From assembly GCF_007997035.1 (NCBI RefSeq), contig NZ_VOSS01000126.1, forward strand, positions 1-39,780: 39,780 nt of DNA. Reading direction: 5' to 3'. Both the position numbers and the translations under genes were made by a program. Below, piece by piece: positions 31,493-38,817 of this stretch. The DNA is from Ralstonia sp. TCR112. Its GTDB lineage: Bacteria; Pseudomonadota; Gammaproteobacteria; Burkholderiales; Burkholderiaceae. Position 1 is the stretch's first letter. Every line of letters begins with the position of its first letter. The notes below the pieces were generated by a model. That model made no database searches, had not been told where the DNA came from, and was given only the letters and a program-made list of their open reading frames with translations.

Positions 31493-32580
31493 ATGGCACA
31501 AACGGACCAGCAGGATTTCTCGGCCTTTGAGGGCACGCGCCCGGTAGCAGATCAGCAGAAGTTCGACATCGGCGCGCTGGAAGCGTGGATGCGCGAGCAG
31601 GTTGAAGGCTTTGCCGGCCCGCTCACGGTTGAACAGTTCAAGGGCGGCCAGTCGAACCCGACGTTCAAGCTGATCACGCCGTCGCGCACGTACGTGATGC
31701 GCGCCAAGCCCGGGCCGAAGGCGAAGCTGCTGCCGTCCGCGCACGCGATCGAACGCGAATATCGCGTGATGGATGCTCTCGCCAAGACCGACGTGCCGTC
31801 GCGAAGATGTATGCGCTGTGCGAAGACGAAGCCGTGATCGGCCGCGCCTTCTACATCATGGAGTTCGTGCAGGGCCGCGTGCTGTGGGATCAAGCCCTGC
31901 CCGGCATGGCGCCCGCCGAGCGCACCGCAATCTATGACGAGATGAACCGCGTCATCTCTGCGTTGCACACGGTGGACTACGCCGCCATCGGCCTGACCGA
32001 TTACGGCAAACCCGGCAACTATTTCGCGCGTCAGATCGAGCGCTGGAGCAAGCAGTACAAGCTGTCGGAAACCGAGTCGATTCCGGCCATGGACAACCTG
32101 ATCGAATGGCTGCCCAAGCACGTGCCGCAGGAAGCCGAGGAAATCACCAGCATCGTTCACGGCGACTACCGGCTCGACAACCTCATCTTCCATCCGACCG
32201 AGCCGCGCGTGCTGGCCATCCTCGATTGGGAGCTGTCGACGCTCGGCCATCCGCTCGCCGATTTCAGCTACCACTGCATGAGCTGGCACATCGAGCCAGG
32301 CCAGTTCCGCGGCGTCGCCGGCCTGGACTTCGCCGCGTTGGGCATCCCCACAGAAGCCGAGTACATCCGCCAATACGAAGAACGCACCGGCCGCCGCATC
32401 ACGGGCGACTGGAACTTCTACCTCGCCTACAACATGTTCCGCATTGCCGGCATCCTGCAGGGGATCATGAAGCGCGTGGTGGATGGCACGGCGTCGTCGG
32501 CGCAGGCGATGGAAGCGGGCAAGCGCGCCCGCCCGATGGCCGAACTGGGCTGGAAGTACGCCCAGCAGGCCGGCGCATGA
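31493..32580 (+). pseudogene. ACAD11-like APH-family acyl-CoA kinase, frameshifted near 31798
   Basis: Two adjacent frames together encode a 362-residue aminoglycoside-phosphotransferase-fold protein. The first frame runs to DALAKTDVP (residue 102). The second continues from KMYALCEDEAVIGRAFYIMEF to the stop at 32580. Adding one G at 31798 (GCCGT to GCCGGT) joins them as DVPVAKMYAL. Motifs are the nucleotide loop FKGGQSNPTFKL, the catalytic HGDYRLDNLIFHP, and the metal-binding LDWELSTLGHPLADF. These segments match the kinase half of human ACAD11/ACAD10 and resemble LvaA, which phosphorylate 4-hydroxyacyl-CoA. As written, the product is cut after 114 residues and lacks the catalytic loop; otherwise the gene is well preserved. 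Confidence 0.88.
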
Positions 32581-32589
32581 TGTTGCGCC

Positions 32590-33008
32590 TCACTTCGTAG
32601 CAGGCTTCTCGTACTCGCGCGCGCTTCCAGCGGACCGGACAGCGGCGCCTCCAGCTCCAGCACCACCCCGCCCGGCAACTGCACGAAGATCTGTGCGGCA
32701 GGCCGCGCGGGGTGTTTTCTGACCTGGTGCGGCACGCCGCTCTGACGCACGGCGGCCAGCACATCGGCGGCATCCTTCCCGGTGCGGAACGCGATATGCG
32801 AAAACACCAACTCCGGCGTATCACCTTCCTGCGTCACGAGATGGACCAGCGCATCGTCGTTCTGGTACAGCCATGTGCCGGGAAACGGAAACACCGGGCG
32901 CGGCCCCGGTTTCCAGCCCAGCACATCAGCGAAGAATTTCAGGATGGGTGCCTCTCCTGCCACGTGAAAGTTCACGTGGTCGAAGGTCCAATCGCTGTCA
33001 GTCGTCAT
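32590..33008 (-). CDS. VOC (glyoxalase-like) family protein, likely frameshifted at its 3' end
   Basis: The protein starts DWTFDHVNFHVAGEAPILKFF and shows the beta-alpha-beta-beta-beta VOC pattern: GTWLYQNDDALVHLV, then ELVFSHIAFRTG, then AQIFVQLPGGVVLELEAP. The metal or substrate residues H15 and E118 or so are plausible. The frame as written runs on to 32427, giving 193 residues and an antisense overlap of 154 bases with the kinase gene. In the next frame the protein would end EYEKPATK with a stop at 32590, a 9-base convergent gap to the kinase. One missing base in the CG tract at 32615-32624 explains this. The ATG overlaps the stop of the SDR gene (ATGA), so translation is coupled. Confidence 0.75.
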
Positions 33009-37036: not shown

Positions 37037-37474
37037 ATGACCACAACCCCTCATCTCGCCGTACCGACGGGCTTTGAACTGCTGAACAAGCCGAGCCCCT
37101 TCCTGACGATGCTGGGGCCGGTGTATGCCAAGGGGATGGGCGCGTCGATGGTGATGGGTTTCCACGTACAGCATCACCACCTGAATCGGCGCGGCATCCT
37201 GCATGGCGGCGTGGTGGCATCGCTGGCCGATGCGGCGCTCGGTTACTGCCTGGCCGAACCCGGCGAAGGCACCGGCGGCGCGCTGGCCATGTCGACCGCC
37301 AGCCTGACGGTGGATTTCATCGCCTCTGCCGGAGAAGGCGACTGGATCGAGATCACCCCGGAGGGATTGCGCACGGGCAGCAAGCTGGCCTTTGCGCAGG
37401 CCCTCTTCCATCGCGGCGACCGGTTGATTGCGCGCGCGAGTGCCGTATTTGCCGTGCTCGGCGGACGTGTTTGA
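37037..37474 (+). CDS. PaaI-family hotdog thioesterase
   Basis: The 145-residue protein has the hotdog-fold signature HLNRRGILHGGVVASLADAA, with the HGG turn and the catalytic Asp of the PaaI group. The second strand pair follows (ALAMSTASLTVDFIASAGEGD). It hydrolyses acyl-CoA, probably to release CoA from stalled intermediates. It is 80 bases upstream of the acyl-CoA dehydrogenase on the same strand and divergent from a LysR gene, so it is likely regulated by it. The chain-length preference is not known. Confidence 0.9.
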   Translation: MTTTPHLAVPTGFELLNKPSPFLTMLGPVYAKGMGASMVMGFHVQHHHLNRRGILHGGVVASLADAALGYCLAEPGEGTGGALAMSTASLTVDFIASAGEGDWIEITPEGLRTGSKLAFAQALFHRGDRLIARASAVFAVLGGRV

Positions 37475-37554
37475 CGCATGGCCGAGCCCGTCTGTCTGAA
37501 CTGAGTTGATGGTTGCCCGTTCGAGGCGCTTGTTCGATGTACTGAGGAGACACC

Positions 37555-38817
37555 ATGAATTTCGATTACACGCCCAAGGTCAAGGAAATGCAGGCACGCC
37601 TGCTTGAATTCTTTGACCAGCACATCTACCCGAACGAGCACCGCTTCCACGAAGAAGTCGAAGCCAACCGCCGTGCCGGCAACGCGTGGATTCCCACCAA
37701 GGTCATCGAAGAGCTGAAGCCGCTGGCGCGCAAGGCCGGGCTGTGGAACCTGTTCCTGCCGCGTTCGCCGCGCGCGCCCGAAGGGCTGTCGAACCTCGAA
37801 TACGCACCGCTGTGCGAAATCATGGGCCGCGTGCCCTGGGCGCCGGAAGTGTTCAACTGCTCCGCGCCCGACACCGGCAACATGGAAACGCTGGAGCGCT
37901 ACGCGTCCGAAGAACTGAAAGACCGCTGGCTGGAGCCGCTGCTGCGCGGCGAGATCCGCTCCGCCTTCCTGATGACCGAGCCGGCCGTGGCCTCGTCGGA
38001 CGCCACCAACATCGAATGCCGCATCGAGCGCCAAGGCGACGAGTACGTCATCAACGGCCGCAAGTGGTGGTCGTCGGGCGCTGGCGACCCGCGCTGCGCC
38101 GTCTACATCGTCATGGGCAAGACCAACCCCGACGCCGGCCGCCACGAGCAGCAATCGATGATCGTGGTGCCGGCCAACGCGCCGGGCATCACCGTCATGC
38201 GCCCGCTGAGCGTGTTCGGTTACGACGATGCGCCGCACGGCCACATGGAAGTCGACCTCAAAAACGTGCGCGTGCCGGTGGGCAACATCCTGCTCGGTGA
38301 AGGCCGCGGCTTCGAGATCGCGCAGGGCCGCCTCGGCCCGGGCCGCATCCACCACTGCATGCGCAGCATCGGCGTGGCCGAGCGTGCGCTGGAGCTGATG
38401 TGCAAGCGCCTGTCGTCGCGCATCGCGTTCGGCAAGGCCATCGCGCAGCACAGCGTCTGGCACGAGCGCATTGCCGAAGCCCGCTGCATGATCGAACAGG
38501 CCCGCCTGCTGACGCTCAAGGCCGCGTACATGATGGACACCGTCGGCAACAAGGTCGCCAAGGCCGAGATCGCGATGATCAAGGTCGTGGCCCCGAACAT
38601 CGCGTGCCAGATCGTCGACTGGGCGATCCAGGCACACGGCGGCGGCGGCGTGTCGGGCGACTTCCCGCTGGCCTCGGCCTACGCGCACCAGCGCACGCTG
38701 CGCCTGGCCGACGGCCCGGACGAAGTGCACCGCGCGGCCATCGCCAAGCTGGAACTGGCCAAGCATCTGCACAGGCTTGCCGATGTGGCAGACATGCCAG
38801 TCACGCGCGGCGCGTAA
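37555..38817 (+). CDS. Acyl-CoA dehydrogenase, ACAD10/ACAD11 (LvaC-like) type
   Basis: The 420-residue flavoenzyme has the full acyl-CoA dehydrogenase fold. Segments match the dehydrogenase half of human ACAD11 closely: AGLWNLFLP, NCSAPDTGNME (106-120), LMTEPAVASSDATN, VINGRKWWSSGAG, RPLSVFGYDD, RLGPGRIHHCMR and LRLADGPDEVH. In ACAD11 this domain works together with a kinase domain on 4-hydroxyacyl-CoA, and the 4-phospho group is eliminated to give an enoyl-CoA. The kinase half is encoded about 5 kb upstream in this window (31493-32580). GAGGAG lies 6 bases before the ATG. A terminator follows. Confidence 0.95.
   Translation: MNFDYTPKVKEMQARLLEFFDQHIYPNEHRFHEEVEANRRAGNAWIPTKVIEELKPLARKAGLWNLFLPRSPRAPEGLSNLEYAPLCEIMGRVPWAPEVFNCSAPDTGNMETLERYASEELKDRWLEPLLRGEIRSAFLMTEPAVASSDATNIECRIERQGDEYVINGRKWWSSGAGDPRCAVYIVMGKTNPDAGRHEQQSMIVVPANAPGITVMRPLSVFGYDDAPHGHMEVDLKNVRVPVGNILLGEGRGFEIAQGRLGPGRIHHCMRSIGVAERALELMCKRLSSRIAFGKAIAQHSVWHERIAEARCMIEQARLLTLKAAYMMDTVGNKVAKAEIAMIKVVAPNIACQIVDWAIQAHGGGGVSGDFPLASAYAHQRTLRLADGPDEVHRAAIAKLELAKHLHRLADVADMPVTRGA

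What the first reader, a model, noticed from the sequence alone, without database searches (positions are those of the whole stretch)
31493..38817. Split ACAD11-like system: APH-type kinase plus matching acyl-CoA dehydrogenase, with phosphatase, hydratase, dehydrogenase and thioesterase nearby
The kinase at 31493-32580 and the dehydrogenase at 37555-38817 resemble, segment by segment, the kinase and dehydrogenase halves of human ACAD11. In that enzyme, as in the LvaA/LvaC pair of levulinate catabolism in Pseudomonas, a 4-hydroxyacyl-CoA is phosphorylated and the phosphate is then eliminated to give an enoyl-CoA. Here the two halves are separate genes in a region that also encodes an enoyl-CoA hydratase, a 3-hydroxyacyl-CoA dehydrogenase, a PaaI thioesterase and a histidine phosphatase. 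Together these could form a full route from 4-hydroxy acids into beta-oxidation. The phosphatase next to the kinase is reminiscent of the phosphatase-like domain of ACAD10 and may remove unwanted 4-phosphoacyl-CoA. The family matches are from knowledge of those sequences; the pathway itself is inference.
Basis: partly seen in the sequence, partly recalled or inferred. Interest (0 to 1): 0.72.

Follow-up and report, generated by a model that had tools for sequence, protein, structure and literature searches.

The report
Bacterial two-gene relative of ACAD11
This Ralstonia region carries, as two separate genes, the bacterial counterparts of the two halves of the animal enzyme ACAD11, which feeds 4-hydroxy fatty acids into normal fat breakdown; the system is already known, though a phosphatase gene that often turns up beside it is not explained.

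Summary
The dehydrogenase (37555-38817) is of the ACAD11/LvaC type: best solved match ACAD11 (58% identity, E 2e-149; best conventional acyl-CoA dehydrogenase 2e-38), with catalytic Asp and phosphate-pocket residues conserved. The kinase matches 3dxp, then the ACAD11 kinase domain, ahead of other APH chains. In this contig it is split into two overlapping frames; it is a single frame in 79 of 79 testable named relatives. All 32 of 120 order genomes with the kinase also have the dehydrogenase, and in 46 of 80 named loci the genes lie 26-234 nt apart; in Ralstonia and most Cupriavidus loci other genes lie between. A 2024 paper showed the predicted activity for Burkholderia pseudomallei orthologues, so the core system is known. 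Not shown: a levulinate route, and the roles of flanking hydratase, dehydrogenase and thioesterase. Open point: histidine phosphatases of two types recur beside these genes (just upstream of the kinase in 52 of 80 named loci; within 3.5 kb of the dehydrogenase, same strand, in 11 of 51 genus representatives). Their substrate is unknown, many loci lack them, and they are not homologous to ACAD10's HAD domain.

The parts
28308..29885 (+). 3-hydroxyacyl-CoA dehydrogenase (PRK08268 subfamily); the profile match begins at residue 23, so the true start is probably near 28374
   Evidence: Pfam 3HCDH_N 1.3e-60, NCBIfam NF006124 above cut-off; same position upstream of the kinase in many relatives
29928..30707 (+). 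enoyl-CoA hydratase family (scores above cut-off for PRK07511 and for 'oxepin-CoA hydrolase, alternative type')
   Evidence: upstream of kinase in many relatives
30720..31454 (+). histidine phosphatase, branch 1, RHG/EIRGG/HGG type
   Evidence: Pfam His_Phos_1 5.5e-32; just upstream of the kinase in 52 of 80 named loci
31493..31837 (+). kinase, N-terminal piece (ATP-binding lobe); last residues are out of frame
   Evidence: 3dxp_A 1.6e-51, ACAD11 2.7e-15
31807..32580 (+). kinase, C-terminal piece with the catalytic HGD..DN motif
   Evidence: 3dxp_A 1.7e-153, ACAD11 1.2e-57, 9o56 6.6e-38, 3ats 1.8e-8; catalytic Asp and Asn conserved
32427..33008 (-). VOC/glyoxalase-like ORF (name given by eye; no Pfam hit) whose 3' end runs antisense into the kinase; lies between kinase and dehydrogenase
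   Evidence: 193 aa here against 133-139 aa in six Ralstonia-type loci; frame differs from four of them
33005..33757 (-). short-chain dehydrogenase between kinase and dehydrogenase
33832..36961 (.). further genes between the two: LysR-type regulator (33832-34824 +, by eye), ZntB/CorA-like transporter (34831-35859 -), LysR-type regulator (35999-36961 -, by eye)
   Evidence: translations; for the transporter (ZntB model, below cut-off)
37037..37474 (+). hotdog thioesterase, 80 nt upstream of the dehydrogenase
   Evidence: Pfam 4HBT 2.4e-12; TIGR00369 just above cut-off; seen only in the seven Ralstonia-type loci
37555..38817 (+). ACAD11/LvaC-type acyl-CoA dehydrogenase (4-phosphoacyl-CoA eliminase)
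   Evidence: ACAD11 8v3u_A 2.2e-149; R259, R264, H267, R270 and D386 match mouse ACAD11 R626, R631, H634, R637 and D753
38955..39647 (+). glutathione S-transferase-like protein (GSH-dependent disulfide-bond oxidoreductase model, below cut-off), downstream of the dehydrogenase in many relatives

Best explanation
The pair is the Burkholderiales form of the ACAD10/ACAD11 (LvaA/LvaC) system. The kinase phosphorylates the 4-hydroxyl of a 4-hydroxyacyl-CoA with ATP. The flavin-containing dehydrogenase homologue removes the phosphate, using its Asp base, an FAD that is thought to cycle without net reduction, and an Arg/His pocket for the phosphate, and gives a 2-enoyl-CoA. Hydratase and 3-hydroxyacyl-CoA dehydrogenase then carry this into beta-oxidation. 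The two catalytic steps were shown in others' work on the B. pseudomallei and mammalian enzymes. That the flanking hydratase and dehydrogenase act in the same route is inferred from gene order. In this contig the kinase frame is interrupted, by an assembly or sequencing error or a recent mutation.
For: Best solved matches are ACAD11 or 3dxp, above other families. Active-site residues conserved. All 32 kinase-bearing genomes among 120 also have the dehydrogenase; adjacency in 46 of 80 named loci. 3HCDH, hydratase and phosphatase lie upstream of the kinase in many relatives. B. pseudomallei kinase Q63VL0 and dehydrogenase Q63VL1 each replaced the matching ACAD10 part in vitro (PMC11342911, passages). 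More synonymous than amino-acid-changing codon differences on both sides of the break in every Ralstonia-type comparison.
Against: No assay of these proteins. The kinase frame is broken here. Q63VL0/Q63VL1 were not aligned to the window proteins; orthology rests on 76-77% identity to three other loci titled Burkholderia (L046, L049, L067) and their shared gene order. Only 15 of 32 order genomes have the two genes within 400 nt, and 14 of 80 named loci show no dehydrogenase in the held flank. Residue R86 of the ACAD11 kinase could not be placed: by its number it falls on F/Y, although an Arg just before a Glu is conserved. The hydratase scores as an oxepin-CoA hydrolase, so the flanking genes may serve another route.
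Confidence: 0.88

Rival explanations
1. A levulinate/gamma-valerolactone (lva) operon in the strict sense: the pair works mainly on 4-hydroxyvaleryl-CoA made from levulinate.
For: Same two catalytic families as LvaA/LvaC (PMC12440821, PMC11342911, passages); a short-chain dehydrogenase lies nearby.
Against: No acyl-CoA synthetase among the 12 neighbouring genes scanned. The short-chain dehydrogenase is on the opposite strand and below the cut-off of each of the 25 models shown of 186. LvaA is only 29% identical to the ACAD10/11 kinase domains, while other bacterial kinases reach 51% (ACAD10) and 38% (ACAD11) (PMC11342911).
Confidence: 0.15
2. In this strain the kinase is a true pseudogene and the pathway is off or served by another kinase.
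For: Two frames in the contig; a second frame disturbance in the adjacent VOC-like gene; no second kinase in the own genome at E up to 0.001 (one match).
Against: Single frame in 79 of 79 testable named relatives, and Ralstonia comparisons show more synonymous than amino-acid changes on both sides of the break. Two breaks within about 1 kb also fit sequence error.
Confidence: 0.3
3. The kinase is an unrelated APH (e.g. antibiotic or small-molecule kinase) that only happens to lie near a dehydrogenase.
For: Pfam APH membership; weak aminoglycoside-kinase model hit, 20 bits against a cut-off of 205; the next solved match of both pieces after 3dxp and ACAD11, 9o56, is labelled aminoglycoside phosphotransferase (its function was not checked).
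Against: 3dxp and ACAD11 score well above it and above the other APH chains; the kinase was never found without the dehydrogenase among 120 order genomes at the thresholds used.
Confidence: 0.02
4. Hydratase, 3-hydroxyacyl-CoA dehydrogenase and phosphatase are neighbours by history and serve another pathway such as aromatic acid breakdown.
For: Hydratase passes the cut-off for 'oxepin-CoA hydrolase, alternative type'. In L077 and L087 phosphatase-kinase-dehydrogenase stand without that hydratase; in L045, L058, L065, L070 and L082 the pair stands without either (at their thresholds).
Against: Tight co-directional spacing of 3HCDH-hydratase-phosphatase-kinase (42, 12 and 38 nt between ORFs), with the same order in many genera.
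Confidence: 0.3

Closest known systems
ACAD11 (and ACAD10) of mammals
   Same: Kinase and dehydrogenase homologous (dehydrogenase 229 of 397 aligned residues identical; kinase C piece 102 of 247); same catalytic Asp and phosphate pocket; kinase upstream of dehydrogenase, as in the fused protein.
   Different: Two genes, not one; no HAD domain; a histidine phosphatase gene instead, and other genes between the two.
Burkholderia pseudomallei Q63VL0 (kinase) and Q63VL1 (dehydrogenase)
   Same: Burkholderiales orthologues (inferred) with shown activity on 4-hydroxyhexanoyl-CoA in PMC11342911 (passages).
   Different: Consecutive accession numbers suggest adjacent genes (inference); in this window they are about 5 kb apart.
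Pseudomonas putida LvaA/LvaC (lva operon)
   Same: Same two-step chemistry.
   Different: LvaB (12 kDa) is needed there for growth on levulinate and binds LvaA (PMC6692424, passages, citing Rand et al. 2017, not read here); LvaA is only 29% identical to the ACAD10/11 kinase domains; operon has LvaD and LvaE.
Pseudomonas citronellolis LA18 lva-like cluster
   Same: Kinase, histidine phosphatase, acyl-CoA dehydrogenase and SDR together, without lvaB; a phosphate-removing role for the phosphatase already suggested there (PMC6692424, passages).
   Different: LvaA-type kinase (59% to LvaA); its phosphatase was not compared with the window's.
PDB 3dxp_A
   Same: Close solved homologue of the kinase, covered by both pieces.
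   Different: Listed as 'putative acyl-CoA dehydrogenase'; its organism (a Cupriavidus) is my recollection, not in the output.

Membership tests
ACAD10/11 - LvaA/LvaC 4-hydroxyacyl-CoA system | Kinase closer to ACAD10/11 kinase domain than to other APH proteins | tested here: met
   ACAD11 1.2e-57 (C piece) and 2.7e-15 (N piece); 9o56 6.6e-38 and 2.6e-8 (function not checked); 3ats 1.8e-8 for the C piece
ACAD10/11 - LvaA/LvaC 4-hydroxyacyl-CoA system | Kinase catalytic residues (mouse ACAD11 D220, N225; R176) | tested here: met
   residues 120, 125 and 75 of the C piece
ACAD10/11 - LvaA/LvaC 4-hydroxyacyl-CoA system | Kinase CoA-contact R86 | tested here: inconclusive
   by number it falls on F/Y; a neighbouring Arg-Glu pair is conserved
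ACAD10/11 - LvaA/LvaC 4-hydroxyacyl-CoA system | Dehydrogenase with HCMR motif, upstream Arg, catalytic Asp in place of Glu, and the helix-breaking Pro | tested here: met
   R259, H267, R270, D386, P97; residue roles from PMC12440821 and PMC11342911 passages
ACAD10/11 - LvaA/LvaC 4-hydroxyacyl-CoA system | Kinase and dehydrogenase occur together | tested here: met
   32 of 32 kinase genomes also have the dehydrogenase, n=120; two further genomes have the dehydrogenase only at these thresholds, each with another APH-family gene beside it
ACAD10/11 - LvaA/LvaC 4-hydroxyacyl-CoA system | Intact kinase reading frame | tested here: not met
   (window); single frame in 79 of 79 testable named loci, so the gene family is a member even if this copy is broken or misread
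ACAD10/11 - LvaA/LvaC 4-hydroxyacyl-CoA system | Activity on 4-hydroxyacyl-CoA | not testable with these tools
   shown by others for B. pseudomallei orthologues (PMC11342911)
lva (levulinate) operon | Acyl-CoA synthetase (LvaE) in the operon | tested here: not met
   none among the 12 neighbouring genes scanned; ligases elsewhere in the genome were not searched and could substitute
lva (levulinate) operon | LvaB, kinase partner | tested here: inconclusive
   DUF6285 (recalled, unverified as LvaB) found in 0 of 16 Ralstonia genomes; whether it is LvaB was not settled
ACAD10 HAD domain counterpart | HAD-family domain | tested here: not met
   the window gene is His_Phos_1

The most novel reading that the evidence does not exclude
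Histidine phosphatases of at least two separate types have become a recurrent third component of the 4-phosphoacyl-CoA pathway in this phylum, for example clearing wrong-stereoisomer or stalled 4-phosphoacyl-CoA or free 4-phospho acids, or controlling the kinase as ACAD10's HAD domain does.
Probability: 0.3. Interest if true: 0.5.

Novelty: new member of a known kind. Interest (0 to 1): 0.3.

Why it matters
The core finding adds a Ralstonia example to a pathway whose mammalian version was described in 2024-2025. In Burkholderiales relatives the usual bacterial arrangement, kinase then dehydrogenase, matches the domain order of the fused animal protein (in the wider phylum the order is more often reversed). 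The recurrent histidine phosphatase gives a specific, cheap test of whether bacteria use a phosphate-removing or regulatory partner for 4-phosphoacyl-CoA, a role suggested in 2019 for P. citronellolis (PMC6692424) and parallel to the restraining role reported for ACAD10's HAD domain (PMC11342911).

Tried and rejected
Unrelated APH kinase: rejected. Conventional acyl-CoA dehydrogenase: rejected (catalytic Asp and HCMR). LvaB test through DUF6285: dropped, because that the family is LvaB is my recollection; comparing the places by eye, 6 of the 25 genomes with DUF6285, all of one genus, have it within 8 kb of a secondary dehydrogenase copy and I saw no other such case, so it neither confirms nor excludes the idea. 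R86 numbering: not resolved. The solved-structure search for the phosphatase gave only weak hits (CobC-like, 1.5e-4), no hint of substrate. The dehydrogenase codon counts are unreliable for loci with a one-codon length difference and were not used. One search failed on a script error and was redone. The 'indels not a multiple of 3' flags also named GSTb against all four loci, SDR against two and the dehydrogenase against one; these ORFs are open at full length in the window, so I read the flags as alignment or end effects and call only kinase and VOC-like gene disturbed. Structure prediction was not run, because a closely related solved kinase exists.
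Full report
What was checked. The window is a contig of a Ralstonia genome: its kinase C piece is 96-100% identical to seven loci (L009-L015), five titled Ralstonia (two of them R. 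pickettii) and two 'Burkholderiaceae bacterium', and all 16 genomes held for the genus, own included, carry both genes. The dehydrogenase is one frame of 420 aa. The kinase is two overlapping frames, 31493-31837 and 31807-32580.

Family assignment of the dehydrogenase. Against solved chains the best match is ACAD11 (8v3u_A 2.2e-149; 2wbi_A 3.9e-149), then a putative acyl-CoA dehydrogenase 4hr3 (9.3e-137). The next acyl-CoA dehydrogenase is 4u83 at 2.2e-38. None of the 18 NCBIfam models hit reaches its cut-off. From the printed alignment, 229 of 397 aligned residues are identical to mouse ACAD11. The residues that PMC12440821 reports as phosphate pocket and base (R626, H634, R637, D753), the general R631, and the proline noted in PMC11342911 are all conserved, at window-protein positions 259, 267, 270, 386, 264 and 97 (paper passages). 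Chain numbering was taken as one less than the mouse numbering and two less than the human.

Family assignment of the kinase. Searched as two pieces, both hit 3dxp_A (1.6e-51, 1.7e-153), then ACAD11 (2.7e-15, 1.2e-57), then 9o56, labelled aminoglycoside phosphotransferase (2.6e-8, 6.6e-38; function not checked); the remaining APH chains are at 1.8e-8 or worse for the C piece. The catalytic Asp, its Asn and an Arg reported to contact CoA (D220, N225, R176) are conserved; R86 could not be placed by number.

Gene order in named relatives. In 80 named loci fetched with the kinase C piece (584 confirmed of a capped list, best 80 kept), a co-directional dehydrogenase orthologue lies in the held flank of 66: 26-234 nt downstream in 46 (Paraburkholderia, Caballeronia, Noviherbaspirillum, Undibacterium and others) and 1.6-9.3 kb downstream in 20 (seven Ralstonia-type, twelve Cupriavidus, one Protistobacter). 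It is absent from the held flank in 14: six Cupriavidus, one locus titled Ralstonia sp. (L033) and seven Duganella. In five of those six Cupriavidus loci the regulator that elsewhere sits beside the dehydrogenase appears near the locus end, so the gene may lie just outside (inference). Direct neighbourhood is thus the commonest state, and the window shows about six genes in between.

Gene order in the order and the phylum. In 120 genomes of the order drawn evenly, 32 have the kinase (E up to 1e-40) and 34 the dehydrogenase (E up to 1e-90). All 32 have both (Fisher 4e-27, not corrected for relatedness); 15 of 32 have them within 400 nt. The two dehydrogenase-only genomes (G022, G047) carry another APH-family gene and a histidine phosphatase gene beside the dehydrogenase; the G047 kinase is 32% identical to the window piece. 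In 51 genus representatives of the phylum (see below) 30 have a related kinase within 8 kb of the best dehydrogenase: upstream on the same strand in 7, downstream on the same strand in 19, opposite strand in 4, so the ACAD11-like order is not universal.

Broken frame. In 79 of 79 testable named loci the kinase pieces lie in one frame without stops; one locus was cut by its contig end. Across seven Ralstonia-type loci the C piece differs by 17-60 synonymous codons and 1-9 amino-acid changes, and the N piece (six loci) by 9-23 and 1-6, weakest for L010 with 9 against 4, so the gene looks constrained until recently. The neighbouring VOC-like gene is 193 aa here against 133-139 aa in six relatives and is frame-shifted against four of them. 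Two disturbances within about 1 kb make sequence error plausible, but reads were not available. No mend was made.

What the literature already shows. PMC11342911 (passages) reports that B. [quoted passage not shown] PMC12440821 (outline, abstract and passages) gives the ACAD11 structure and residues. The core claim is therefore already known for a Burkholderiales relative; I did not fetch or align Q63VL0 or Q63VL1.

The phosphatase. The histidine phosphatase gene lies just upstream of the kinase, on the same strand, in 52 of 80 named loci, and the phosphatase model has no other hit in their 1567 kb; two of the 28 without it (L014, L088) are cut upstream by the contig end. In the order survey 9 of 120 genomes have a homologue at E up to 1e-20: six beside the kinase (own genome included), one directly beside a dehydrogenase copy (G090), two elsewhere (G053, G054). 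For the phylum, 85 of 299 genomes have an ACAD11-like dehydrogenase; I took one genome for each of the 52 genera except the window's own, 51 in all, and only its best copy. Of these, 11 have a histidine phosphatase; all 11 lie within 3.5 kb and on the dehydrogenase strand, and 10 of the 11 loci also have the kinase (chance that all 11 fall in the inner 41% of sequence about 6e-5). One of the 11 is of the window type (L134), nine are of another type (L138, L143, L144, L149-L151, L154-L156), and L139 is a weak 46-bit hit of neither type, without a kinase, perhaps background. The window type has RHG, E-I/L-RGG and HGG; the other has RHG, E-F-D/N and SGG, so that the second His of the usual motif (motif recalled) appears replaced by Ser in the alignment. 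The model was seeded with distant neighbours of such clusters (L099, L100, L101), and L138 is the same gene as seed L099; this favours finding that type near these genes but does not explain its absence further out. PMC6692424 (passages) already noted a histidine phosphatase beside an lvaA homologue in P. citronellolis and suggested phosphate removal from 4-phosphovaleryl-CoA. Searches of the held library for 'levulin'+'histidine phosphatase' and for 'histidine phosphatase'+'acyl-CoA dehydrogenase'+'phosphotransferase family'+'4-hydroxy' found only that paper.

Limits. Many kinase-bearing loci lack the phosphatase (28 of 80 named; 20 of 30 in the phylum set), so it is not required. Its substrate is unknown, and the best solved relatives are weak. 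The hydratase, 3-hydroxyacyl-CoA dehydrogenase and thioesterase are plausible but unproven partners; the hydratase also passes the cut-off for an oxepin-CoA hydrolase.

Verdict. A real, correctly recognised ACAD11-type pair; ordinary for Burkholderiales and already assayed in a related species. The broken kinase is probably error or a recent change. The recurrent phosphatase is the part worth following.

Noticed in passing
window 32427-33008 (-): VOC/glyoxalase-like ORF, 193 aa here against 133-139 aa in six Ralstonia-type loci, out of frame against four of them and running antisense into the kinase; a second disturbance within about 1 kb of the kinase break.
   Followed up: partly
L099, L100, L138, L143, L144, L149-L151, L154-L156: Histidine phosphatases near ACAD11/LvaC-type genes with SGG where the window type has HGG, so possibly catalytically unusual (L099 and L138 are the same gene).
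   Followed up: partly
genomes G003, G009, G010, G011, G012 (Ralstonia): A second kinase paralogue (52-56% identity) in 5 of 16 genus genomes, with no second ACAD11-type dehydrogenase at E up to 1e-90: an orphan kinase.
   Followed up: no
seven Duganella loci (L048, L053, L055, L073, L075, L080, L085): Kinase orthologue with no ACAD11-type dehydrogenase in the held flank.
   Followed up: no
Cupriavidus necator H16 plasmid NC_005241.1:239335-240546: An 83%-identical dehydrogenase gene on a plasmid; 110 plasmid records carry a match at E up to 1e-120.
   Followed up: no
window 29928-30707: The hydratase passes NCBI's cut-off for 'oxepin-CoA hydrolase, alternative type'.
   Followed up: no
window 4143-10065: Aconitase-family gene (478 aa, a length that fits LeuC as recalled), citrate synthase and succinate dehydrogenase-type flavoprotein genes on the minus strand.
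   Followed up: no
window 19920-21131 and 21200-22891: A DUF2863 protein of unknown function next to an ORF matching family 5 solute-binding proteins.
   Followed up: no
3dxp_A (PDB): Solved close homologue of the kinase listed under the name 'putative acyl-CoA dehydrogenase', perhaps named after its partner or ACAD11.
   Followed up: no
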